A stretch of DNA of 20,347 nucleotides from a virus. This document shows positions 557-10,913 of this stretch, piece by piece. Each line of letters starts with the position of its first letter. Within the stretch, counting starts at the first letter, position 1. Location: positions 1 to 20,347 of the IMG/VR virus record IMGVR_UViG_3300031974_000267, one strand, 5' to 3'. A program made the position numbers and the translations under genes. The notes below the pieces were generated by a model, which ran no database searches, was not told the DNA's origin, and saw nothing but the letters and a program-made list of their open reading frames with translations.

Positions 557-1942
557 TTATAAAGCGATTGCCATTGCAATAGCAAATCCATTAGTTGCAA
601 AAGATGATGTATCTGTAGCTTCAACATTTTGCCAAGCAGAGCCATCCCAATATTTAAGTACGTTCCCCGTTGTATTAAAATATAATGCACCGTCAATCAA
701 GGCATCCCCATCATTATCTGTTGTAGGGTCTGATGCTTTGGGTCCTAAATATCTATCATCAAAATTATCGTATGCAGTTTCCGCAGCAGTAGCACTTGCA
801 GCAGCAGCGGTAGCTGAAGTCGCAGCATTGGTTGCTGATGTACTCGCAGCACTCGCAGAGGATGCAGCATTAGTTTCTGAAGTCGATGCAGCAGATGCTG
901 AACTGGCAGCAGCTGTGGCACTTGATGCAGCATTGGTTTCAGACGTTGCGGCATTGGTTGCAGAAGTTGCAGCATTGGATGCTTGAGTAGCAGCCGAGGT
1001 AGCAGAGCTTGCAGCAGCAGTTGCTGATGAAGCGGCATTAGTTTCTGATGTTGCAGCATTTGTTGCAGAAGTAGACGCATTGCTAGCAGACGTGGATGCT
1101 GCAGAAGCAGAGCTAGCTGCATTGGTTTCACTTGTTGCTGCGTTGGTCGCAGATGTTGCAGCATTTGTCTCTGATGTAGCTGCATTGGTTTCTGAGGTAG
1201 CGGCAGCTGTTTCAGATGCGGCAGCGGCTGTTGCGCTAGCAGCAGCATTGGATGCAGAAGTAGCTGCAGCAGCGGCATCTACAATTAAAGACCATTTTCC
1301 TATATCGGCATTAGAACTTAATGGTAAAGAACCAGATGATGTATGAGCTGTCTGGCAAATGTATATGTTATCATTAGTTGTATCTTTAACAATATCTCTA
1401 ACCGCAAATGTTTCACCAGCAGACCAATTTCCTTTAAAGGTTCCTAGCTCTTGAGCAACACTTAACTCTCCTGTATTATCAAATGATAAAACTTTATTAG
1501 CTCTATCAGTTGGTCCCACAGTAAATTCTGTGTTAGTCATAGTGTTAGTTCTAGAAATTTTAATTGATCTATCTACTTCTTCTTGTAATTCTTGAGCTAA
1601 AATAACTGATCTATCTAAACCTTCTTCATGTGTTTCTGCAGGAAAAGGGTCGTTCGCTATATAGTCGATTGCTTGAGTTTGAGTAGTATCTCTAAGTAAC
1701 ACAACTGTTTCTGTTGCACTTGGAATATTACCCGCAGTAAATGTAATGCTTCCTCCAGATGGAGAACCTACACCTGTAATAGTATAATGTGTTGTTAAAG
1801 TTTTTGTAGTCTCAGTTCCTAGAGCTGATCTAATAATAACGGTTAAGTCAGACTCAGCTAATACTTTAAATGTGTAACTAAAGGTAGTGGTAGTTCCATC
1901 ACCCGAATAACTGTTTTTTACAATTGTAGTCGATATTGTCAT
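557..1942 (-). CDS. Tail fibre protein, T7 gp17-like N-terminus with Ala/Ser/Thr heptad shaft
   Basis: This 461-residue protein is probably the trimeric fibre that binds the host and attaches to the tail. Residues 1-135 match the phage T7 tail-fibre N-terminal domain in pattern: a 'GDGTTTTFSYTF' start, 'GVGSPSGGSITFTAGNIP', 'VLLRDTTQTQ', then 'LDRSVILAQELQEEVDRSI'. Residues 168-220 (KGNWSAG...DIVKDTT...YICQTAHTS...GKWSLI) resemble a small carbohydrate-binding module of the CBM5/12 type. Residues 222-389 are almost only Ala, Ser, Thr, Asn and Glu in seven-residue units such as SETNAAT. The C-terminus (YLGPKASDPTTDNDGD...YFNTTGNVLKYWDGSAWQ) is a common fibre cap motif. AAGGA lies 5 nt before the ATG. 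T7 gp17 is longer (553 aa) and has a different tip, so receptor binding may fall to the genes downstream. Confidence 0.92.
   Translation of the reverse strand: MTISTTIVKNSYSGDGTTTTFSYTFKVLAESDLTVIIRSALGTETTKTLTTHYTITGVGSPSGGSITFTAGNIPSATETVVLLRDTTQTQAIDYIANDPFPAETHEEGLDRSVILAQELQEEVDRSIKISRTNTMTNTEFTVGPTDRANKVLSFDNTGELSVAQELGTFKGNWSAGETFAVRDIVKDTTNDNIYICQTAHTSSGSLPLSSNADIGKWSLIVDAAAAATSASNAAASATAAAASETAAATSETNAATSETNAATSATNAATSETNAASSASAASTSASNASTSATNAATSETNAASSATAAASSATSAATQASNAATSATNAATSETNAASSATAAASSASAASTSETNAASSASAASTSATNAATSATAAAASATAAETAYDNFDDRYLGPKASDPTTDNDGDALIDGALYFNTTGNVLKYWDGSAWQNVEATDTSSFATNGFAIAMAIAL
776..1279 (-). repeat. Coding heptad repeat region of the tail fibre (21-nt periodicity)
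   Basis: About 500 bp encode residues 222-389 of the fibre as imperfect seven-residue units, typically S-E/A-T-N-A-A-T/S. At DNA level this appears as degenerate 21-nt units built from GCA/GCT/GCC with TCT/ACA codons. The units differ in their codons, so this is protein-level repetition rather than a recent tandem duplication. Regular Ala every few residues would suit a long trimeric helical shaft. Confidence 0.85.
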
Positions 1943-2019: not shown

Positions 2020-4611
2020 TTAATTAAATATTCTCTTTGGTAATTCACTTGGTTTACTTTCACCAGGAGACCACCAAAAATCTTGTTGGGTGTCTCTCAT
2101 ATAGTTGTTAATTATACGGCTATTTCTACTATCAAAATCTGGGTCTAATTGTCTTTGGATAGTTTCCATAATAACTCTTTCCCATAATAACCTTAAATAG
2201 AATACCGATGAACCTGGCATGTTTCTTTTTAAAAAATTTAAACTATCACCTACTACATTAGTATCTCTACCATTGAGATGATCGAATATAGCATTTTTAG
2301 GAATACCTAATAAATCAGATAAGAAACCCATTGCAGGTCCTGGTAAAGTTTCTGCCATAGTTTTACCATATCTATTCGTGTCATTAATAAAAAAATCACC
2401 AAATAGACCTAAACCACCTCCTGTAACTAAAGCTCTTAAAAAATATTCGCCTGGATTTTCTTTTACATAATCAACAGGAGTTGGATTTCTACCTTTAGTA
2501 ATTTCTCTAAGTTCCATAGTAAAGGCACCATATAAAGCTCCACTTAAAATTATATCACCCATATATCTAAATTTACCTAAACCTTGTTGTGAAATACCTC
2601 TGGCAATGTGAGTAAACATAAGTGTAATTGGAAATTGTTTAAACATAGCAGCAGATAAAATAAGTTCTCCAGCAAAGGTACCAGGTCTAGCATTTTGAAG
2701 TAAAGCAACACGTCCTTTTGCAGATAAAGATGGAACCGCAAATTCAGTTTCTGTTTTAATCATATCAAAAAATTTAGCTGCAATTCCTTCTTTGGTATAA
2801 TCATCAATATCAGTTCTTATTCTAATTTCATCGGGTATAAAAAATTTTGCTTCTTTACCTTGATAAGAAGGTATATCTTCACCTGCATCATACAATTTAG
2901 TAGTTCTTGCAACATTCCAATCATCTTCTGTAATACCATATCTTTTAAACGATCTTTGTAATGGTTTATCTAATTCATTAAATGTTTTACCAATACTATC
3001 TGCAAGATAACCCTGGAACTCCATACCAAAACCCCAACGTCCAGCTTGTGTATGACCTTGTAGTCCAGATAGAGTAAGTGTGGCATCTGCTAATCTTTGT
3101 GTAAATTCTGAACCATTAACTTCTAACATAAATCGATTGACTTGTTGTGAATATGGAACCCAGTTTTCTGCAATCAAACCAGTTCGTATTGCAAGTTTTG
3201 CAATCTGTGGGTCTTTAGCAGTTAATCCTTCTTTGTATAATTCTAAAGTTTTTCTAGCAGATTTGAACGCAGGTAAACCATTAAAACCATTAGTAACCCT
3301 TTGCCAGTTAAAGTCTGTTAATGCAACAATAGAAGCTGAACCCAAATAAGATGAAGTTAGTACCTGTCTTAAATTTGAGAAAGTTCTTGCCCAGAAGGGA
3401 CTGCCTGGTTGTCCAAGTTGATTTTTAAAATATAAATGTAAATTTTCAAAACCAGCTTTAAATAAACTACCTTTGACAGCAGCTTCTGCTTTGTCCATTT
3501 TAGTCGCTTTTAATATAGAAGGTTTTAAAGGCTCATCACCTGTTGCTTTTCTTCCTGCTGCTAAAACTGTATTTTTTAATTCAATGTAAGTTTTGTCTGG
3601 GTCTGGTCCTAAAATTCTCATCATAGCAGTATCTCTTGATACACTATCAATATGTTTCATTACTAAACCAAGTAAACCACCTTCTTTAATTCCAAATTTT
3701 TGTTGATAAGTTTTCCAAGCATCGGAGTCTTTAAATACTAAAAATCTATGATCTATTCGTTTGTTGTAAAGTTTCCCTTTTTGTAAAATGTTTCCAGTTT
3801 TATTTAAACCACCTTGAGTAATCGTTTCCCAAACATCTGCTAAAGCTAATCTTAAACTTTCATCACTTGCAAATACTTTGCTAGTAGTATGGTCAATCAT
3901 TTGTGAACGATTAAGTAATGGAAAAATAAAATCTGTCCAAGCATCTTTACCTGCTTTACTAATAGTAACCCAATCATGCGGTTGAGGTAAATGGTAATCA
4001 GCTCTAACAACAATGTTACCACCATATTTATTATGTCTAGCAACTACTAGATCATTTGCTTTTCTATAAGCCTTAGCCATTTCAATCGCAACAGTATCGT
4101 TTGTATCTTCATTAAATAAAGCTTTTAATAAATTAGTTTCTGTAGTTTGTTTTTTTTGATTTTTTTTACCAAACAATAAACCAACTTTTTCCAAAGGTTT
4201 TTCTCTAAGCTCTGCTAATACTTCATCTAAGTATCTTTGAACAATTGCAGTTTCTTCTTGTATAGCACTTTCTAAAGATTGAAAGTTTGCCATATCATCT
4301 CTAGCATAAATAGCGATTGCTGCTTTATTAATATCTGGCTCTCCTTTAGCATTTCTGTATTCCGTAAGTTTACGTCTAATCTCCACCTGTCTTTGCATTT
4401 GTAAACGGTTACGTCTTTTTTTAAGTAATGCTTGACCTTTAAAATTATCATAAGCATCTTTAGCAGCTTTAATACTTGCTTCAGTAGGATTAATACCTTG
4501 ACCTTTATAAAATCTTTCTTGCATACCAATGAACTCTAATTGTTCATCGTATTGTTCTTTAGTAACTAAACCTTCATTTAAACCATTTGATAAACATTGT
4601 TTGTAACTCAT
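2020..4611 (-). CDS. Large internal virion/ejection protein, gp16 position (second of two)
   Basis: The best start is the ATG at 4609-4611 (MSYKQCLSNGLN, 863 aa). It overlaps the upstream stop as TAATG and has AAGGA 9 nt before it; a TTG start three codons upstream is possible but weaker. About residues 55-90 and 105-145 are charged and helical (KKRRNRLQMQRQ). Around residues 280-340 is the block IDHRFLVFKDSDAWKTYQQKFG followed by 'SVSRDTAMMRILGPDPD', a pattern I know from very large phage ejection or polyvalent-type proteins. Residues 650-745 include hydrophobic stretches (ITLMFTHIARG, ILSGALYGAF, TGGGLGLFGDF) that might insert in membranes. The end, 'QQDFWWSPGESKPSELPKRIF', is also typical of such proteins. 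It lies after the gp15-like gene and before the fibre, the place of T7 gp16. No catalytic motif was recognised. Confidence 0.82.
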   Translation of the reverse strand: MSYKQCLSNGLNEGLVTKEQYDEQLEFIGMQERFYKGQGINPTEASIKAAKDAYDNFKGQALLKKRRNRLQMQRQVEIRRKLTEYRNAKGEPDINKAAIAIYARDDMANFQSLESAIQEETAIVQRYLDEVLAELREKPLEKVGLLFGKKNQKKQTTETNLLKALFNEDTNDTVAIEMAKAYRKANDLVVARHNKYGGNIVVRADYHLPQPHDWVTISKAGKDAWTDFIFPLLNRSQMIDHTTSKVFASDESLRLALADVWETITQGGLNKTGNILQKGKLYNKRIDHRFLVFKDSDAWKTYQQKFGIKEGGLLGLVMKHIDSVSRDTAMMRILGPDPDKTYIELKNTVLAAGRKATGDEPLKPSILKATKMDKAEAAVKGSLFKAGFENLHLYFKNQLGQPGSPFWARTFSNLRQVLTSSYLGSASIVALTDFNWQRVTNGFNGLPAFKSARKTLELYKEGLTAKDPQIAKLAIRTGLIAENWVPYSQQVNRFMLEVNGSEFTQRLADATLTLSGLQGHTQAGRWGFGMEFQGYLADSIGKTFNELDKPLQRSFKRYGITEDDWNVARTTKLYDAGEDIPSYQGKEAKFFIPDEIRIRTDIDDYTKEGIAAKFFDMIKTETEFAVPSLSAKGRVALLQNARPGTFAGELILSAAMFKQFPITLMFTHIARGISQQGLGKFRYMGDIILSGALYGAFTMELREITKGRNPTPVDYVKENPGEYFLRALVTGGGLGLFGDFFINDTNRYGKTMAETLPGPAMGFLSDLLGIPKNAIFDHLNGRDTNVVGDSLNFLKRNMPGSSVFYLRLLWERVIMETIQRQLDPDFDSRNSRIINNYMRDTQQDFWWSPGESKPSELPKRIFN

Positions 4612-7600
4612 TATGTGCAATCCTTTAATCGTTGTAAGAACGTGTCATCTTGTTGTTCACGTTGCAAGATTTCTTTAACTGTAATGTTAGTGTTTTCTAG
4701 TTCGCCAGTATCTTTATTTAAGACTGTTTGATCTGGGATTTTGTCATCGGGACTGAGTTTTGCAACAATGTCTTCTGAGTATCCTCGGACACCAAGTTCA
4801 AGTCCGCTGTCTTCATAAACCACTCCTGCTCGTTGTTCTCCATCTTTAATGCTAGTTCCGCTGAAGTTTCTTTTGGAGTTGTCAATTTTTCCGATTTTGT
4901 ATTTTTCATTAAGCGCATTATAGTTGTTTTCTATCCCTTTGACAATATCATCTGTAATTAATTTTTTACCATCAATTAATCTATTTTTAGTAAATGTTCT
5001 TGTTACGTTCCTCATTAATAATTCTGGTACATCTGCTGTTATAAGTTTTACTTTTACTGTGTAACCTTCTTTTTCTGCATTACTAATAACTTTTTGTAAT
5101 TTTTCTGAAAATCTACCTGTAGTTGGATAAATAATATTATCACCATTTTTAGATGCAATCTTCATAATTTGATAATTAATAATACTACTTTCTACATGAA
5201 CACCGTTAGCATTAGCGCCTTTTTGAAATTCTGGTAGTAATGATTTTATATCATCGCTATCTGCAACAATTGCTCCTAACTTATCTTTTTCTTGTGTAAC
5301 AAATGTAGACTTACCCGATGCAGTAGGTCCCATTACAATAGTCAGTTGTCTTTCTTTTTTAGCAGCACCTGTACCATAAACTCTTTTTATAAACTCATCT
5401 AAACCAACTCCTAAGTTACCAAAGTCTCTAGTCTTAAAATATTCTGGTGTACCAAAATTTGCTCTAACAGATGTGTCATTAAAAAATTTAGCATTTTCAT
5501 CAAACTTTTGTTTAACCAAAGGATGATCTAAGAACTTGTTTGCATTAGCAATGGTAGGTTCTAGGTTTTTGATTTCGTCAATTAATCTTTCTTCATTTAA
5601 ATTTAAAACGGTTCGAGGACCAGTAGTAGGTAGGTCTTCACCAAACAAATTAGTATTTAAATCTTCTATTTGTTTTTCAACAACTTCTGGATTTTTAGAT
5701 ACTTCTTTGTGTTTTAAGTCTTCTATTATGTCGACTTTTTCTGCTGTCGGTTCTTTAGATATTGATGATGACGGAGTTTCAACTTCATTAGTTCGTTGAA
5801 GTCCCCCAGCTGAGAACCTATCAAAATCGCCTTCTCTAACTGCTCGTCTGACAGCTTCTTCAGCGAGTCTCCTAGCTTCTGACTTGTTACCCTGTTTGAA
5901 GATTCCTGCTGCGGCATTGAAGTCGTCTGAGAGTCTTCCTGTTTGGGTAGCGATGTTACTAAGTCTTTCGTAGATTTTTTCATTGTCTATTCCTCTTTGT
6001 AAGTTTTCTTGTTTATTTAAAACATTACCAGCAGAAGATAAATCTTTTTCATTCGCAAGTACAGTTTTAAATACATCTTTTAGTTTTTTTGAATTTTGAG
6101 CTACATACTTAATCAAAGCTGTTTTTTCAAATATTAATGTTTCTTCAAAAAATTCTTTACCAAATAAAGTTTCTTGTTCTGATTTTACAGTAGGTGTTCT
6201 TTTAATTTGATCTAATACAGTATCTATTTCTTGTAAGGATGTAAATTTACGAGTTGATAATGCTGCTAATAATTTATTATGAATTGATTTGTTTTCTATT
6301 TTTAAACCAATACGAGCTGCTAAATCTTCATCTATTCTTTTATTTAAAAATAAACCCCAAGCATCATCTGATAATTTAGATAAACCATCAGCATTTCTAA
6401 TTAATTTTTGTTTTAAAGGTAAAGTTTTTTTAATTTTATCCCAATCTAATTTACCAGTTGTTCTTAATACTCTTGCTGCATCTAAAGCTGAACCAGTATT
6501 ATTTCTTAGATTAACCAACATACCTTTAACCAGCATCATTTCTTTAGGGATATTATCTACTTCTTTAAATACATGAGCTATAATTTTAACATCTTGACCT
6601 CTAGCTTTTAATCTTTTTGCAAGTCCTAGTCTTTGGTGTCCATCCACAACAGCTTTTGTACCATCTGCAAATTCATAAATTAACAATGTACCTGCTGAGG
6701 GTTGGTCCCAAGCTTCTACAGCTTTTAACTTTTCACTTACCCCAAATACGTCTCCATCCATTTTGTATTGAAATTCACCAGGTCTAAACTCAATTTCGTC
6801 TGGGTCTAAAGTTCTTACGGTACTTTTATAATCATCTAAAAGTTTTAAATCAACTTCAGCAGTTGGTTGTTCAAGTATTTTATTTGGTTTCTTATCAGCA
6901 AATACTACATCTGCCATTTCATCTATACGTTCATCAAATTCCTTATTGCTAGCTGGATTATCAATAAAAGGGTTATCATCATCTGTTAATGAAGTTTTAG
7001 TAGCAACTTCTGCAGGCTCTGATTTTAATTTAGGATTTTTCTTAACTACTTCTGCATACATTCTTTTTAATCTATGAGTAGGTATTTCATCTAATTTATC
7101 TCTAATAATTTTTAAACCATCTCCTGTTAAATCAAATCCTTTACCTAATCCCTTAAATAAACCCAGTAAGGCAGGACCACCAATTGCAGCTCCTAATGTT
7201 GCTGCAGCTATTTTTTGTTGTTCGGGTGAAAGAGTTAAACCAAATACTTGTAAATCTGGGTCTTCAAAACCAAGTTGTTTTCTATATTCACCAACATAAC
7301 CATATTGAATAGCAGTCTCTGCAGTAGCTGCTAATACACTTTCAATCATAGCAATACGTCCAGCAGCTGCTAAAAATGTTTTAGGTACTTGATAAGCAAA
7401 ACCAATAGGTAAAGTTCCAACTATAAATGGGTCAGCAACTACACCTGCTTGACCTACAAATGAACCAAACTTACCATAACCACTTGCTCGACTTCTTATG
7501 TCTTGTAAATTTTCAAATGATTGTTGTGCTTCAAACCCTATTTGTTTTTGTAAAGCTTCTTGGCTATCCAAACCTTTATCTTTTAAAAGTTTTTTTAAAT

Positions 7601-7946
7601 TAACATCTTCTTCTAATTTTTTATTTAATCTTTCGTGAAACAACTCTATTCTATTTTCTAGAGGGTCTACATCTTCAGAAGTATAAATATCTAAATTAGT
7701 TTCATCAAATGATTGTCCTTCACCAATCATAGGATTAGTTAAATCAGTATGACCTAGGGTGTGCGCCATATCTACAACTTCACCATATTTATTCATAAGG
7801 TTCCATTGTTCAGAAGTAGATAGCTGTGTTTTCTTTACATAGTTCCAGGCAGCAGCAAGGTTTTCATTGTAGTTAGTTTTGTTACCAGTTGCATATTCAT
7901 CTGGACTAACTCTAGTTGCTTTGTCTTCATCTATAAAAAAAGACAT
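4611..7946 (-). CDS. Multidomain ejection/polyvalent protein with ParB-like and zeta-toxin-like kinase domains
   Basis: The 1111-residue protein starts at an ATG with AGGAGT nearby. Residues 155-270 are Gly/Ala-rich and hydrophobic (FVGQAGVVADPFIVGTLPIG; IAAATLGAAIGGPALLGLF), a possible membrane-active segment as expected for gp16-type ejected proteins. Residues 375-480 form a ParB/sulfiredoxin-fold domain with the signature V-V-D-G-H-Q-R-L-G-L-A at 433-443, followed by a helical region to about 583. Residues 865-1020 form a zeta-toxin-like P-loop kinase: Walker A GPTASGKST (873-881), VADSDDIKSLLPEF, HVESS (917-921), IIYPTTGR (938-945) and RNVTRTFTKNRLI. The end (TVKEIL...DDTFLQRLKDC) recurs in large phage polyvalent proteins. 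No transglycosylase domain is seen at the N-terminus, unlike T7 gp16. It probably enters the host with DNA and acts on nucleotides, nucleotide sugars or DNA; the substrate is unknown. Confidence 0.88.
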   Translation of the reverse strand: MSFFIDEDKATRVSPDEYATGNKTNYNENLAAAWNYVKKTQLSTSEQWNLMNKYGEVVDMAHTLGHTDLTNPMIGEGQSFDETNLDIYTSEDVDPLENRIELFHERLNKKLEEDVNLKKLLKDKGLDSQEALQKQIGFEAQQSFENLQDIRSRASGYGKFGSFVGQAGVVADPFIVGTLPIGFAYQVPKTFLAAAGRIAMIESVLAATAETAIQYGYVGEYRKQLGFEDPDLQVFGLTLSPEQQKIAAATLGAAIGGPALLGLFKGLGKGFDLTGDGLKIIRDKLDEIPTHRLKRMYAEVVKKNPKLKSEPAEVATKTSLTDDDNPFIDNPASNKEFDERIDEMADVVFADKKPNKILEQPTAEVDLKLLDDYKSTVRTLDPDEIEFRPGEFQYKMDGDVFGVSEKLKAVEAWDQPSAGTLLIYEFADGTKAVVDGHQRLGLAKRLKARGQDVKIIAHVFKEVDNIPKEMMLVKGMLVNLRNNTGSALDAARVLRTTGKLDWDKIKKTLPLKQKLIRNADGLSKLSDDAWGLFLNKRIDEDLAARIGLKIENKSIHNKLLAALSTRKFTSLQEIDTVLDQIKRTPTVKSEQETLFGKEFFEETLIFEKTALIKYVAQNSKKLKDVFKTVLANEKDLSSAGNVLNKQENLQRGIDNEKIYERLSNIATQTGRLSDDFNAAAGIFKQGNKSEARRLAEEAVRRAVREGDFDRFSAGGLQRTNEVETPSSSISKEPTAEKVDIIEDLKHKEVSKNPEVVEKQIEDLNTNLFGEDLPTTGPRTVLNLNEERLIDEIKNLEPTIANANKFLDHPLVKQKFDENAKFFNDTSVRANFGTPEYFKTRDFGNLGVGLDEFIKRVYGTGAAKKERQLTIVMGPTASGKSTFVTQEKDKLGAIVADSDDIKSLLPEFQKGANANGVHVESSIINYQIMKIASKNGDNIIYPTTGRFSEKLQKVISNAEKEGYTVKVKLITADVPELLMRNVTRTFTKNRLIDGKKLITDDIVKGIENNYNALNEKYKIGKIDNSKRNFSGTSIKDGEQRAGVVYEDSGLELGVRGYSEDIVAKLSPDDKIPDQTVLNKDTGELENTNITVKEILQREQQDDTFLQRLKDCT

Positions 7947-7949
7947 AGA

Positions 7950-10025
7950 TTACTCCTGTATTTTAGATTTTATTAAATTTAAATCTAGGATTAGCGGTTG
8001 TTGAGTTCCTTTAAATAAATCAAAATTTTTAGTCATTACATATCTTGGTTGACCTTTGAACGGATGGTTAGTTAATGAAATCATATACCGACCATTACCT
8101 ACTGCAACAAATTCTGGGTTTTCATTATTTTTAAATATATCAATTGATCTGATAGAACCATCTCTTATAGATGCTCCAACACCTTCTTGATTACCAATAG
8201 CCTGTTTAAATAACTCTGGGTCTTGTCTTAATCTTTCTACAATGTTTGAAAATTGTCCTTGTTTTACAAATGAAGGTATAGAAATAAATGTACCATTATA
8301 TTTATCTAATCCACCATAATTATCAATTTTACCAGCAGCTAAATTAATTGCATTTTCAAAAATATTTTTTTTGAAAGTTACATCTGTCTCTCCTTTAATA
8401 TACATTTCATAAGCATAAATATATTCAGCAGCTTCAATAATGGCATTATAAGTTTCTGGATTATTTGGATAAGCTTCTCTATATTTTGCAACAGTAGATT
8501 TATAAGTGCTTTCAGATTTTTTAATACCTGGTGAAATGTTTTTGTTTTTAACAATATCGTAACCACTAATAGCTTTTTTAAATCCTTCTCCATACTGACC
8601 AGTTTGATTAAATAAACCACCTATATAAGCAAAGAATTTATTTTTAGGTGCAATTTCTGAAAAGACACGTCCAGCATCTTGACCAAATGTTTTATTAATT
8701 GTTGATAACACTCTAACTAACTGATCTTTATTTCTATTGTTTTCAAAAAAATCAGTCAATTGTGATTTTTCATCTTCACTAAAATATTTAGTTTCAACTC
8801 CATAAAATGCTGAAATAGATTTAGCCTGGATAATTCTTTCACTCATTGCATTAGCAACTGTATCTGATTGCGCAGGATTATTTAATAAATCAGTAATAGG
8901 TAAAGCGCTAACATTGTTAAATACACCAATATTTTTTGCAGTAGTGATTGGGTCTTTAATTAAACTGCTTGATATTTCATTATAAAAATCTCTAATAACT
9001 TCAGATTTTAATACTATATCTGGGTCTGCACCTTCTTTAACAGTAAGTGCTGCAGAGTTTGCTTTAGATAATTCTTGATAATTCATTGTTTTTAATTCAG
9101 ATAAAACTTGTCCTTTTAATAAAATTTTGTTTGCTCTATCTAAAATAGAATTATCTTGTGTTGAAGCAGCTTCATCAATTATGTTTTCTAAAACACTTAC
9201 ATCTGGAAGACTGTAATCTTTCAATTGATCTTCCATAACCTTTAAAGTTTCTTTAGCAGTTTCATTTATAGTTTGTCTATTTTTTCCTGCATAAGCTTTT
9301 AGTTTTTCTATTGTATCTAAATTATTTATATTTTTAATTGCATTAGCTAAACCTTCTTCTGGGTTTACATCTATTTCTCTTTTTGCTTTATAAAAATCTA
9401 TATCATCATAAGAACCCTTTTTTACTTTTTCTGAGTCTGGACCAAATAGATTTTGAAATTTAGATGAATTTAAAATATTATTTAAATCATTTAATGCTAA
9501 ATCTTTTAGCTCTTGGGTCTCACCATAGACAACATCCTTTTTTAACTTTTCAATATTTTCTAATTCTAGTGTTTGGGATTTTATAATAAAAGCTTTGTTA
9601 GAGTTTTTTCTAACAACTATACCATCTTTAATTTCTTGTTTTTTTAAATATGAGTCAAATAATTTTTTAGAAAATCTATGTTTAAAATTACCACCAACAT
9701 TAATTTTAGCTTTTGTTAAAGCATTATTATAATATTTAACTGCTTCATCTGGGTCATCTATCATGCCAGCTTTTTCAACTGCCATAGATAAACCTTCAAA
9801 ATTTTCATTACCTTCTAATATTTGTCTTGATTTTTCTAATACTTCATTTTCTGATTTTCTAGTTTCTATTTCTGCATAAAGTTTTGTAGCAGTTTGTGCA
9901 GCTCCTTTAAATGCAGTTCCTATTTGTGCAGCTGTCGCCTGGCTAACTCTCATTCCAGACGTTGTAGGTCTAGCAGCTATTTCAGAAGTAGGTTTAACTT
10001 GTGTTTCATAAATCTTAATTGCCAT
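7950..10025 (-). CDS. Internal virion protein, T7 gp15-like position (691 aa)
   Basis: The 691-residue protein starts at an ATG with AGGAGT upstream and ends 3 bp before the next gene. It is highly charged and almost all helical, with Lys/Glu/Asn-rich segments and no signal peptide or catalytic motif. Order (gp13-like, gp14-like, this gene, then giant proteins) and length (T7 gp15 is 747 aa) point to the inner core/ejection protein that forms part of the channel across the periplasm during DNA entry. The opening MAIKIYETQVKPTSEI is followed by 'TTSGMRVSQATAAQIGTAFKGAAQTATKLYAEIE', an amphipathic start common in gp15-like proteins of marine podoviruses. The C-terminal 140 residues include 'PSFVKQGQFSNIVERLRQDP' and 'GNGRYMISL', suggesting a small globular domain. 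Direct sequence similarity to T7 gp15 cannot be judged by eye. Confidence 0.8.
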   Translation of the reverse strand: MAIKIYETQVKPTSEIAARPTTSGMRVSQATAAQIGTAFKGAAQTATKLYAEIETRKSENEVLEKSRQILEGNENFEGLSMAVEKAGMIDDPDEAVKYYNNALTKAKINVGGNFKHRFSKKLFDSYLKKQEIKDGIVVRKNSNKAFIIKSQTLELENIEKLKKDVVYGETQELKDLALNDLNNILNSSKFQNLFGPDSEKVKKGSYDDIDFYKAKREIDVNPEEGLANAIKNINNLDTIEKLKAYAGKNRQTINETAKETLKVMEDQLKDYSLPDVSVLENIIDEAASTQDNSILDRANKILLKGQVLSELKTMNYQELSKANSAALTVKEGADPDIVLKSEVIRDFYNEISSSLIKDPITTAKNIGVFNNVSALPITDLLNNPAQSDTVANAMSERIIQAKSISAFYGVETKYFSEDEKSQLTDFFENNRNKDQLVRVLSTINKTFGQDAGRVFSEIAPKNKFFAYIGGLFNQTGQYGEGFKKAISGYDIVKNKNISPGIKKSESTYKSTVAKYREAYPNNPETYNAIIEAAEYIYAYEMYIKGETDVTFKKNIFENAINLAAGKIDNYGGLDKYNGTFISIPSFVKQGQFSNIVERLRQDPELFKQAIGNQEGVGASIRDGSIRSIDIFKNNENPEFVAVGNGRYMISLTNHPFKGQPRYVMTKNFDLFKGTQQPLILDLNLIKSKIQE

Positions 10026-10026
10026 A

Positions 10027-10473
10027 TTAGATTACTCCTACTGTTGATGCGTCCGTTAAAAGACTAGATGCCGCTCTAAAGTAACTTGCGGTTTTAGCAA
10101 CTCTACCTCTATATCGTTCAACATTTGCTTCTGCTCTTTGCATAATTGCATCATTTATTCCTTGGTCTCTAGCAATCTCAGCATTGTATTGCATCATGTC
10201 TCTATCAGTATCAACCATAATTTGATTTTCTAATGCTAAAGAATATGCTGAACCAGAAAATTCTACTCCTGCTCCTGCAAAAGAAGTTTCTAATGCACCT
10301 CTTTGTTTTTCAGCAAAATAATCAAAACGTGGTAAATCGTATTGTTCAAATACTTTATAACCTTGTTCGGCTTGTTGTTCTTTTAATTTTGCATCTCGAT
10401 CAAGTAAAGCTGCATTGTAATTAGAAGCTTTTGCTGCTGCATCACCTGCAATTAAATCACCAAAAAAACTCAT
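10027..10473 (-). CDS. Internal virion protein, T7 gp14-like (148 aa)
   Basis: The 148-residue protein starts at an ATG that overlaps the upstream stop as ATGA, with AGGATA 6 nt before it. It opens MSFFGDLIAGDAAAKASNYN and is mostly a long helix rich in Ala, Gln, Glu and Asp (LLDRDAKLKEQQAEQGY; NAEIARDQGINDAIMQRAEA), ending in an Ala/Ser-rich amphipathic tail (TASYFRAASSLLTDASTVG). A short hydrophobic start followed by coiled-coil-like sequence is characteristic of gp14-type ejection proteins, which form the outer-membrane part of the DNA channel in T7. T7 gp14 is longer (196 aa). The neighbours, gp13-like before and gp15-like after, match the T7 order exactly. Confidence 0.83.
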   Translation of the reverse strand: MSFFGDLIAGDAAAKASNYNAALLDRDAKLKEQQAEQGYKVFEQYDLPRFDYFAEKQRGALETSFAGAGVEFSGSAYSLALENQIMVDTDRDMMQYNAEIARDQGINDAIMQRAEANVERYRGRVAKTASYFRAASSLLTDASTVGVI

Positions 10474-10913
10474 ACTATTATCCTCGCATATCTTATATAA
10501 TTTGAACCATCTGGACCGTAATACTTCATTAATCCTTCTTTTTCAAATCCTAACCATTCAGCAAATTTATGACCTAGTTTAAAATCTGCTTTTACGTTAG
10601 TTTGTATTCTTTTTACTTTAGAAGTTTTAACAAGTATATCAAATTTTTCTTTAAAATTTCTAGCCATAGATACTCTATATTTCCAAACATCTTTAGTAGC
10701 CATAACCCACCCTTCGGCTACACCATCCCACAGCAAGTAAATGCCGCCTGCCGCTATTGGCTTGTGATTTGCAAGCGCTGTAAACGACATCCCAACTCTT
10801 TCTAAATACTGAGCATATTTTCTATGCTCTGGTTTTAAATAAAGTTCTTGTGCATTAAGCTGTTGGCTTAATATAAATTTTGCGTGTTCTGACTTAAAAG
10901 GAATTATATCCAT
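10470..10913 (-). CDS. GNAT-fold internal virion protein, T7 gp13-like (147 aa)
   Basis: The 147-residue protein starts at an ATG that shares one base with the stop of tail tubular protein B (TAATG). The chain has the order of a GNAT acyltransferase fold: 'FILSQQ' helix, 'GMSFTALANHKPIAAGGIYLLWDGVAEGWVMA' strands, the helix 'NFKEKFDILVKTSKVKRIQT', then 'HKFAEWLGFEKEGLMKYYGP', the usual C-terminal strand of GNAT proteins. The canonical acetyl-CoA pyrophosphate loop (Q/R-x-x-G-x-G/A) is not visible, so it may be structural rather than enzymatic. Phage proteins of this type sit in the place of T7 gp13 (138 aa), required for virion maturation. Order immediately after the gp12-like gene supports this. 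Confidence 0.85.
   Translation of the reverse strand: MDIIPFKSEHAKFILSQQLNAQELYLKPEHRKYAQYLERVGMSFTALANHKPIAAGGIYLLWDGVAEGWVMATKDVWKYRVSMARNFKEKFDILVKTSKVKRIQTNVKADFKLGHKFAEWLGFEKEGLMKYYGPDGSNYIRYARIIV

What the first reader, a model, noticed from the sequence alone, without database searches (positions are those of the whole stretch)
4611..7946. ParB-like domain and zeta-toxin-like kinase in one ejection-position virion protein
The protein in the gp16 place has a hydrophobic Gly/Ala segment, then a ParB-fold domain (DGHQRLGLA, residues 435-443), then a P-loop kinase domain (GPTASGKST, 873-881, with downstream zeta-like motifs). It would be packaged and injected, so it could act on the host before any phage gene is expressed, for example on nucleotide sugars, nucleotides or invading/host DNA. 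Multidomain 'polyvalent' phage proteins carrying ParB-like and zeta-type domains are described as a class (Aravind and colleagues); this combination in a compact T7-like marine phage ejection module is unusual to me.
Basis: partly seen in the sequence, partly recalled or inferred. Interest (0 to 1): 0.78.

Follow-up and report, generated by a model that had tools for sequence, protein, structure and literature searches.

The report
Swappable enzyme slot in phage ejection protein
In a group of mostly marine viruses of bacteria, the protein in the position that normally helps push DNA into the cell has a ParB-like body with an exchangeable slot that usually holds one of two kinds of nucleotide-attacking enzyme or nothing, which looks like a swappable weapon injected with the viral DNA.

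Summary
The minus-strand gene 4611-7946 encodes 1111 aa with a zeta-type P-loop kinase (Pfam E 1.3e-12) and a ParB module. Pfam misses the ParB module, but its predicted structure matches ParB/Noc. Head and tail genes place the phage with HTVC010P-type pelagiphages.

The finding is wider. ParB-module relatives number 495 in one IMG/VR scan. In the loci examined they sit at a nearly fixed place: gp14-like, gp15-like, [N-part + ParB + slot + C-tail], 866-aa structural protein, fibre. Among 117 non-identical proteins the slot holds a RelA/SpoT-like domain (51), a zeta kinase (47), nothing (18) or possibly an ART (1). One RelA/SpoT-like payload was modelled; its best structural match is the toxin Tas1. 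Three pairs of phages with 94-98% identical chassis differ in payload; one shows clean in-frame payload loss. Cultured pelagiphages Skadi and Greip carry only a short N-part-like protein there.

Beside zeta forms there is no room for an immunity gene before the next gene. Packaging and injection are inferred; a homologous zeta domain was found in P-SS2 virions. It works like MuF polymorphic toxins but lacks MuF. I read it as an injected, exchangeable host-takeover effector.

The parts
4611..7946 (-). Whole gene, 1111 aa ejection-position protein (N-part, ParB module, linker, zeta-type kinase, C-tail)
   Evidence: ORF and translation
6837..7946 (-). N-part, residues 1-370: mostly helical, with Gly/Ala-rich hydrophobic segments (top windows at residues about 163-187, 190-209 and 245-267); cultured pelagiphages Skadi and Greip have a short protein matching this part
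   Evidence: Predicted structure, hydropathy, profile hits of the N-part plus ParB profile to Skadi_48 and Greip_6, 23.2 and 22.2 bits
6498..6836 (-). ParB/Srx-fold N-terminal (CTP-binding-type) domain, residues 371-483
   Evidence: Foldseek and VIA matches to ParB, Noc, KorB, PadC
6618..6644 (-). DGHQRLGLA motif, residues 435-443; D-G-H-Q-R invariant in 45 of 45 aligned homologues
6192..6497 (-). Helical domain like the DNA-binding domain of ParB/Noc, residues 484-585
   Evidence: VIA match to Noc DNA-binding domain 6y93 at 484-587, Z 6.7 rmsd 4.5 (a middling score by the tool's own note), and longer ParB/Noc matches ending at 581-585
5832..6191 (-). Beta-hairpin and helices conserved in the family, residues 586-705 (LFG and GN.L motifs)
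5397..5831 (-). Linker, residues 706-850
   Evidence: lower conservation
4884..5396 (-). Payload slot, here a zeta-type P-loop kinase, residues 851-1021
   Evidence: Pfam, alignment of 22 payloads, PDB profile hit 1gvn E 7.3e-11
5304..5330 (-). Walker A GPTASGKST, residues 873-881
4614..4757 (-). C-terminal tail, residues 1064-1111, shared by zeta, RelA/SpoT-like and empty forms
   Evidence: profile hit E 4.8e-18 in the window protein
2020..4611 (-). Next gene, 863 aa from the ATG at 4611 (866 aa from the listed TTG), phrog_684 virion structural protein; its ATG overlaps the stop codon (TAATG)
7950..10025 (-). gp15-like ejection protein (phrog_992), homologue of phiV10 p18
10027..10473 (-). 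gp14-like internal virion protein (phrog_418)
10470..10913 (-). Homologue of phiV10 p16 (annotated internal virion protein) and of an HTVC034P gene annotated putative acetyltransferase; no Pfam match of its own

Best explanation
This is a podovirus ejection protein built as a delivery chassis with an exchangeable effector slot. Shown from sequence: a conserved N-part, a ParB/Noc-like module and a C-terminal tail enclose a slot that holds a zeta-type kinase here, a RelA/SpoT-like pyrophosphokinase in relatives, or nothing. The slot is swapped or lost cleanly between near-identical phages, and the gene sits inside the ejection cassette with no immunity gene between it and the next structural gene. 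Inferred: the protein is packed inside the head and leaves with the DNA through the tail. The N-part and C-tail serve packaging and membrane passage. The ParB module holds the protein on DNA, perhaps with CTP as a switch. The payload then acts in the host cytoplasm before phage genes are expressed, phosphorylating a nucleotide or nucleotide-sugar (zeta form) or making (p)ppApp or (p)ppGpp (RelA/SpoT-like form). This would stall host growth and redirect resources. No immunity gene is needed because the cell is doomed.
For: Zeta domain. Walker lysine, acidic pair and arginines invariant in 22 of 22 aligned zeta payloads; patterns GxxxxGKS, [D/N]xDxxK and HxES present in 29 of 29 zeta tails of the second survey. 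Low dN/dS of the zeta domain against close relatives L004 and L006: 0.070 and 0.087. ParB fold. Position: the 866-aa family follows in 73 of 76, 66 of 66 and 20 of 23 loci with room, and the gp15-like gene precedes in 78 of 84, 72 of 76 and 18 of 26 (the first two sets share contigs). Payload swaps: L054/L055, L264/L267, L240/L245; 16 changes of payload state on a tree of 51 rows. RelA/SpoT payload: Pfam above cut-off in 3 of 10 tails scanned; Foldseek best hit Tas1 6ox6, E 2e-7, for the one payload modelled, L065. No room for an immunity gene before the 866-aa gene: gap of 60 nt or less in 43 of 43 zeta and 53 of 56 RelA/SpoT-like forms. Virion evidence for a homologous kinase: P-SS2 ORF 030, MuF-type minor head protein with a zeta-like domain, 96.5 peptides on average in virion proteomics (PMC2784084, passages). 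MuF toxins with adenosine 3'-pyrophosphokinase domains are toxic in E. coli and make (p)ppApp (PMC12226406, abstract).
Against: No proteomics of this phage or of a member with the ParB + payload architecture was found. For P-SCSP1u, a distant ParB-module relative, term searches of the cryo-EM paper found no passage on such a protein. Toxicity and substrate are untested. The residue aligned with Glu116 of zeta toxin is proline, so UDP-GlcNAc may not be the substrate, and polynucleotide kinase Pnkp1 is the second-best PDB profile hit (E 3.5e-8). 18 of 117 proteins have no payload, and cultured pelagiphages Skadi and Greip have neither payload nor ParB module in the protein at that place, so neither is needed for infection in general. 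8 of 53 RelA/SpoT-like tails lack the E-x-Q motif and may be a divergent or inactive type. dN/dS of the zeta domain is high against more distant L005 (0.589) and L097 (0.432). The chassis is not randomly paired with payloads: 90 of 116 nearest neighbours agree.
Confidence: 0.5

Rival explanations
1. The payloads are injected counter-defence enzymes, not toxins: for example the kinase domain repairs cleaved RNA ends or changes a defence nucleotide, and the RelA/SpoT-like enzyme makes or depletes a signalling nucleotide.
For: PDB profile hit to RNA-repair kinase Pnkp1, E 3.5e-8; PHROG polynucleotide kinase phrog_505, E 1.4e-6; exchange between close relatives fits an arms race.
Against: The best PDB hits are zeta toxin itself (7.3e-11) and, for the other payload, Tas1. 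No ligase or phosphatase domain showed up in P0001, and the neighbours in the cassette are structural genes. RelA/SpoT-like and PBECR domains are described as toxin domains (PMC5512222, and passages).
Confidence: 0.25
2. A weapon between phages: the injected payload blocks competing phages or superinfection rather than taking over the host.
For: Phage-encoded MuF toxins have been proposed to serve competition (PMC5576092, abstract and passages); related cassettes lie in contigs of alphaproteobacterial genomes, probably prophages (integration not tested).
Against: No immunity gene between zeta forms and the next gene (43 of 43), unlike MuF toxins, of which 89.4% are followed by a small ORF (PMC5576092). 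An immunity gene elsewhere in the genome is not excluded.
Confidence: 0.12
3. The kinase domain is a structural or energy-coupling part of the ejection machine, such as a gate that uses nucleotides.
For: Nearly fixed position in the ejection cassette; nucleotide-binding fold.
Against: The slot is exchanged with an unrelated fold or is empty in phages with near-identical chassis and neighbouring DNA; Skadi and Greip infect without it.
Confidence: 0.1
4. Assembly chimeras or annotation artefacts created the mixed architectures.
For: Most contigs are metagenomic; no reads were examined.
Against: The same classes recur in frame in 117 non-identical proteins, with a shared C-tail; RelA/SpoT-like forms also occur in contigs of named strains, Methylobacterium jeotgali and Bradyrhizobium sp. 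NAS80.1.
Confidence: 0.02

Closest known systems
MuF polymorphic toxins of temperate phages (Jamet 2017, PMC5576092; Apk2, PMC12226406)
   Same: Virion-module protein with a constant part and exchangeable enzymatic domains, including RelA-like ones; proposed to be loaded in the head and injected.
   Different: Here the constant part is an ejection-protein N-part plus ParB module, not MuF; the slot lies between the ParB module and a conserved C-tail; no ORF fits between zeta forms and the next structural gene; the cassette is a podovirus one. L111 bridges the two: MuF, two zeta domains and two ParB modules in one ORF.
Polyvalent proteins (Iyer 2017, PMC5512222)
   Same: Several unrelated domains in one late protein thought to be injected. 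The paper names zeta-like kinases (in conjugative elements and MuF fusions), RelA/SpoT and DdrB-like ParB domains (passages and two sections).
   Different: This podovirus architecture and its payload exchange were not in the parts I read; the ParB here looks ParB/Noc-like with a DNA-binding domain.
Zeta/PezT toxin kinases
   Same: Fold family; positions of the Walker lysine, Asp67 and Arg158 of zeta.
   Different: No antitoxin gene beside it; Glu116 equivalent is Pro; embedded in an ejection protein.
Tas1 and small alarmone synthetases
   Same: Best structural matches of the alternative payload, for the one modelled (L065).
   Different: Delivered, as inferred here, by a phage protein rather than a secretion system; product unknown.
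Halovirus HCTV-5 gp114
   Same: Annotated zeta toxin plus ParB in one protein, five genes before the major capsid gene.
   Different: Zeta lies before ParB (147-287, then about 566); only a 26-29 residue match to this ParB family; no ejection cassette in the stretch seen.
Middle internal virion protein of pelagiphages Skadi (424 aa) and Greip (421 aa)
   Same: Same place, just before the 866-aa family (profile E 5.9e-105 and 2.4e-95); matches the family profile in its N-part at 23.2 and 22.2 bits.
   Different: No ParB module, no payload and no C-tail match; the gene in the gp15 place is a lysozyme or pesticin-domain protein.
phiV10 p19 (epsilon15 p16 homologue by annotation)
   Same: Same place between the gp15-like gene and the 866-aa family; weak match to the C-tail, E 2.9e-4.
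   Different: 600 aa, no ParB module and no payload found by these profiles.

Membership tests
Zeta-type kinase domain (Pfam PF06414) | Score above curated cut-off | tested here: met
   48 bits against 22.3
Zeta-type kinase domain (Pfam PF06414) | Walker A lysine, catalytic Asp (zeta D67) and Arg (zeta R158) positions | tested here: met
   K879, D898, R983 by the printed HMMER alignment to 1gvn, invariant in 22 of 22. That these residues are catalytic in zeta is recalled.
UDP-GlcNAc kinase toxins (zeta/PezT proper) | Glu116 position of zeta toxin | tested here: not met
   Aligned residue is Pro, invariant in 22 of 22. The role of Glu116 is recalled. I therefore do not claim this substrate.
UDP-GlcNAc kinase toxins (zeta/PezT proper) | Adjacent antitoxin gene (toxin-antitoxin module) | tested here: not met
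   The next gene overlaps the stop codon and the gene before it is the gp15-like gene, 3 bases away; 43 of 43 zeta forms have at most 60 nt before the 866-aa gene
ParB/Noc/KorB clamp proteins | ParB N-domain fold followed by DNA-binding domain | tested here: met
   Predicted model: 7nfu 370-585, 198 aligned, rmsd 4.8, Z 8.3; 7bm8 375-483, rmsd 2.4, Z 9.7; the second domain alone is weaker (6y93 484-587, Z 6.7)
ParB/Noc/KorB clamp proteins | Recognised by a ParB sequence family | tested here: inconclusive
   None for P0001 or 46 members in Pfam, and no ParB chain in a PDB sequence search; homologue L111 hits TIGR00180 at E 3.8e-5, below the cut-off
ParB/Noc/KorB clamp proteins | CTP binding and hydrolysis, loading on a parS-like site | not testable with these tools
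   Canonical parS (recalled) absent from the window, 0 matches with 3 mismatches, but the specificity of this domain is unknown
DdrB-like ParB domains of polyvalent proteins | Belongs to the DdrB-like group | tested here: inconclusive
   No Pfam match; a DdrB-like viral protein at rank 16, E 6.4e-4, among ParB/Spo0J-type rows in the viral fold search
MuF polymorphic toxins | MuF domain | tested here: not met
   No MuF match in P0001; of six proteins scanned with NCBIfam only L111 has one
MuF polymorphic toxins | Constant part with exchangeable toxin-like domains | tested here: met
MuF polymorphic toxins | Small immunity ORF downstream | tested here: not met
Polyvalent proteins | Unrelated activities in one polypeptide within virion genes | tested here: met
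Polyvalent proteins | Packaged and injected | not testable with these tools
   needs proteomics; indirect support from P-SS2
RelA/SpoT-like pyrophosphokinases (alternative payload) | Pfam RelA_SpoT or fold match | tested here: met
   Pfam above cut-off in L019, L027, L030 of 10 tails scanned; Foldseek of L065

The most novel reading that the evidence does not exclude
Podoviruses own a standard injection vehicle: an ejection protein whose ParB/Noc-type module acts as a CTP-switched clamp on the phage DNA, whose ends fit it to the ejection machine, and whose slot is reloaded by recombination with different nucleotide-attacking enzymes. Phages would then switch host-takeover weapons without changing their virion. 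This would explain why internal virion protein genes fall in metaviromic islands of marine phages.
Probability: 0.35. Interest if true: 0.85.

Novelty: new variant of a known kind. Interest (0 to 1): 0.72.

Why it matters
Virion-delivered toxin domains have been described above all as MuF fusions. An ejection protein with a payload slot in podoviruses, including relatives of the globally abundant HTVC010P group, gives a defined and testable system. Natural pairs such as L264/L267 show the payload present or absent in otherwise similar phages, and cultured SAR11 phages Skadi and Greip show the place occupied by a bare N-part-like protein. It also offers an answer to an open remark of Mizuno et al. 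2014, that the reasons for internal virion proteins lying in metaviromic islands 'are more obscure' (PMC3909814, passages): the gene may vary because its cargo is exchanged. Bacterial strains whose contigs carry RelA/SpoT-like versions (Methylobacterium jeotgali, Bradyrhizobium sp. NAS80.1) make experiments possible.

Tried and rejected
Rejected: that the combination is unique to this phage; that it is a toxin-antitoxin module; that the kinase is needed for the ejection machine as such (empty forms).

Corrected while checking: I first held that the cultured HTVC010P-type phages lack this cassette. That is true of HTVC010P and HTVC034P by phmmer, of the two HTVC034P proteins at that place by profile (its large protein, and a HTVC010P one, carry LPD38) and of two Lederberg proteins by profile. 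It is not true of Skadi and Greip, which carry the 866-aa family and an N-part-like protein without ParB or payload. HTVC203P also has a short match to the 866-aa family, not followed up.

Led nowhere: a PDB sequence profile for the N-part plus ParB gave no ParB chain; canonical parS in the window, none; promoter/terminator scan, nothing above chance; single-sequence PDB search of P0001; NCBIfam on the payloads of L065 and L055, nothing; Pfam on the P-SCSP1 protein, nothing. Paper searches for pelagiphage, internal virion or ejection terms with zeta toxin, and for Tas1 with phage, virion and polyvalent, listed no title or abstract describing this architecture (listings only, open-access papers only; one search listed 15 of 2,742).

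Limits: the surveys return the best 80 of 495 and of 446 relatives, the two sets share contigs, and they are biased to the queries. Truncated proteins and second copies of contigs were left out before counting; rows for the tree were picked by hand from one set. In one search, 35 identical rows of 152 were merged; 7 truncated loci of 80 carry no label; a few proteins cut by a contig end after the payload stay in the counts. Labels came from profiles trained on the first set. The ART-like call for L062 is by eye (DUF3990 only E 0.12). The second ParB-like motif in L055 is by eye. L245's RelA/SpoT-like label is a weak profile match without the E-x-Q motif. E-values of local profile searches refer to small local sets.

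Full report
The observation. The gene at 4611-7946 lies on the minus strand and encodes 1111 aa. The kinase is a clear Zeta_toxin match (E 1.3e-12). The ParB part is invisible to Pfam in this protein and in 46 aligned members up to E 0.1, and a profile of 45 homologues finds no ParB chain in the PDB by sequence. An AlphaFold2 model of residues 1-695 built on 45 homologues (mean pLDDT 74.5) indicates the fold. The top 27 Foldseek rows in the PDB are ParB, Noc, Spo0J or KorB chains, 3 of them at E 0.001 or better. VIA-align matches cover residues about 370-585 (Z 8-11), several of them with rmsd near 12 A; the first domain alone is tighter (7bm8, rmsd 2.4) and the DNA-binding domain alone is weaker (6y93, Z 6.7). 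A distant homologue, L111, hits ParB TIGR00180 at E 3.8e-5, below its cut-off. So this is a ParB/Noc-type module by predicted structure.

What the phage is. By TerL (64.1% to HTVC034P, 61.8% to HTVC010P) and by portal, major capsid and tail tube genes (59-64% to these two) the window belongs with HTVC010P-type pelagiphages; GC is 33.5%. The ejection cassette varies in this group. HTVC010P and HTVC034P have no phmmer homologue of the gp15-like, ParB-payload or 866-aa proteins; their large protein carries LPD38; two Lederberg proteins at that place match none of the profiles. Skadi and Greip do carry the 866-aa family (E 5.9e-105 and 2.4e-95) and, before it, a protein of 424 and 421 aa that matches the family profile in its N-part (23.2 and 22.2 bits) but has no ParB module, payload or C-tail match. 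Of 50,697 phage records, 109 match the 866-aa protein, 13 of them named Pelagibacter. The fullest match to the window's cassette in a named record is Dunaliella virus SI2, which has the ParB module without a payload. In epsilon15-like phiV10, homologues of the p16-like, gp14-like, gp15-like and 866-aa genes occur in the same order around p19, a 600-aa protein with only a weak C-tail match (E 2.9e-4).

The family. A second profile found 446 among 501; the best 80 were kept. In bacterial genome contigs 28 of 191 matches were relatives, including contigs of named alphaproteobacterial strains. Where the contig has room, the 866-aa family follows in 73 of 76, 66 of 66 and 20 of 23 loci, and the gp15-like gene precedes in 78 of 84, 72 of 76 and 18 of 26 (eight second copies of contigs were left out of the first set, and the first two sets share contigs). 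The exceptions include Ruegeria phage 45A6, P-SCSP1 and the MuF protein L111. Of 50,697 phage records, none has a match covering 80% of the window protein. With four family queries the ParB-module relatives among the listed rows are SI2, 45A6, the P-SCSP1 group and one fosmid phage; the other listed hits match the zeta region or, in one Vibrio phage, the N-part, and one row was not listed. The P-SCSP1 authors guessed from size and place that g20/g21 encode internal virion proteins and found no annotation or significant hits (PMC9860041, passages).

The slot. After the ParB module and a linker, the proteins differ, and then share a C-terminal tail of about 48 residues. Among 117 non-identical proteins (152 before merging), labels are RelA/SpoT-like 51, zeta 47, none 18, possible ART 1. 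RelA_SpoT is called by Pfam in L019, L027 and L030 of ten tails scanned. A second, Pfam-negative type aligns with it by hhalign (94% probability). Its model (L065 tail, mean pLDDT 63.6, about 82-96 over residues 111-290) has T6SS effector Tas1 as best PDB hit (E 2e-7), followed by small alarmone synthetases. Of 53 distinct RelA/SpoT-like tails, 45 keep the E-x-Q motif and 8 do not. In genome contigs there are also a PBECR1 RNase match in the slot of L184 (E 1.2e-8) and an M15 peptidase before the ParB module of L191.

Exchange. On a tree of 51 ParB modules, payload states need at least 16 changes (shuffled mean 22.2; as low in 1 of 200 shuffles). Zeta needs 12 and the RelA/SpoT-like state 9, of which well-supported branches force 9 and 8. 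So payloads are inherited to a degree but replaced often; 90 of 116 nearest neighbours under 98% identity agree. Three pairs show recent events. L054 (zeta) and L055 (RelA/SpoT-like) have identical ParB modules (308 of 308) and N-parts 97.9% alike; their DNA is 90% alike for 7285 bp up to the slot, without detectable similarity in the slot, and 78% alike after it. L264 and L267 are 91.4% alike over 8244 bp before and 92.8% over 4412 bp after the slot; L264 lacks the payload cleanly and in frame. L240 and L245 are 89% alike before and 84% after; the payload of L245 is only a weak RelA/SpoT-like match.

Function of the payload. Between the window and its relatives L004 and L006 the zeta domain has dN/dS 0.070 and 0.087; with the more distant L005 and L097 it is 0.589 and 0.432. 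Walker A, the acidic pair, H-x-E-S and three arginines are invariant in 22 of 22 aligned zeta payloads, and the first three motifs occur in 29 of 29 tails of the second survey. The best PDB profile match is zeta toxin (7.3e-11), then Pnkp1 (3.5e-8) and PezT (3e-6). By that alignment the positions of zeta K46, D67 and R158 are kept (K879, D898, R983) and that of E116 is proline; which zeta residues matter is recalled, not tested. The substrate is therefore open.

Delivery. The module position, the Gly/Ala-rich hydrophobic N-part and the stop-start overlap TAATG with the next structural gene fit an ejection protein, but packaging was not shown for this family. The closest experimental fact is for a homologous zeta domain. 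ORF 030 of cyanophage P-SS2 (17648-22147), 32% identical over the kinase, was detected with 96.5 peptides on average in virion proteomics (PMC2784084, Table 2 passage); the paper calls it major capsid protein, the GenBank entry minor head protein. That is a siphovirus head protein, not an ejection protein. MuF toxins with adenosine 3'-pyrophosphokinase domains are toxic and make (p)ppApp (PMC12226406, abstract).

Comparison. It works like MuF polymorphic toxins (constant part, exchanged enzymes, virion context) but is not one: there is no MuF domain and no adjacent immunity ORF. 89.4% of MuF toxin genes are followed by a small ORF (PMC5576092, passages), whereas here 43 of 43 zeta and 53 of 56 RelA/SpoT-like forms have at most 60 nt before the next structural gene. 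It fits the broad polyvalent-protein class (PMC5512222, passages and two sections). Precedent for zeta with ParB exists in HCTV-5 gp114. What appears new is the podovirus chassis with a slot that mostly alternates between two nucleotide enzymes, and its frequent exchange; this rests on the searches (listings, open-access papers only). [quoted passage not shown] PMC6487183 found that island to vary in sequence rather than gene content in its population. The cause of internal virion genes lying in such islands was called obscure (PMC3909814, passages).

Noticed in passing
L005 ORF residues about 438-498 and L029 residues about 416-480: A similar insert of about 60 residues sits at the same place in the ParB domain, just before the DGHQR motif, in one zeta-type and one RelA/SpoT-type protein; perhaps a movable mini-domain.
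   Followed up: partly
L111:4603-9822: One 1740-aa ORF with MuF (TIGR01641, E 9.5e-17), two zeta-type and two ParB modules, joining the MuF toxin world to this family.
   Followed up: partly
L280:24363-28573 and L281:8339-11855: In cultured SAR11 phages Skadi and Greip the middle internal virion protein is N-part-like only, and the gp15 place holds a protein annotated lysozyme or pesticin-domain.
   Followed up: partly
L185:4885-13098: ParB module and the 866-aa structural family fused in one ORF of 2738 residues.
   Followed up: no
L184:3883-8031 and L191:4018-7356: PBECR1 RNase match in the slot in Aureimonas flava, and an M15 peptidase domain placed before the ParB module in Oceaniglobus trochenteri.
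   Followed up: no
L062:6990-10010: Payload with an ADP-ribosyltransferase-like look by eye (weak DUF3990, E 0.12).
   Followed up: no
L055:8922-10700: Before the RelA/SpoT-like domain there is a second ParB-like motif by eye (RDGNSTYAIAAQAG), so this payload may itself be two domains.
   Followed up: no
L168:18174-21863 and L167:14832-16346: A HTVC034P and a HTVC010P ejection-position protein carry LPD38, a polyvalent-protein domain; the same domain lies near the end of the 3912-aa ParB protein of Ruegeria phage 45A6, which also has helicase, methyltransferase and acetyltransferase matches.
   Followed up: partly
window 557-1942 and 519-986: Tail fibre gene with an Ala/Ser/Thr-rich repeat-like middle; the plus-strand ORF 519-986 opposite it looks like a shadow ORF.
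   Followed up: no
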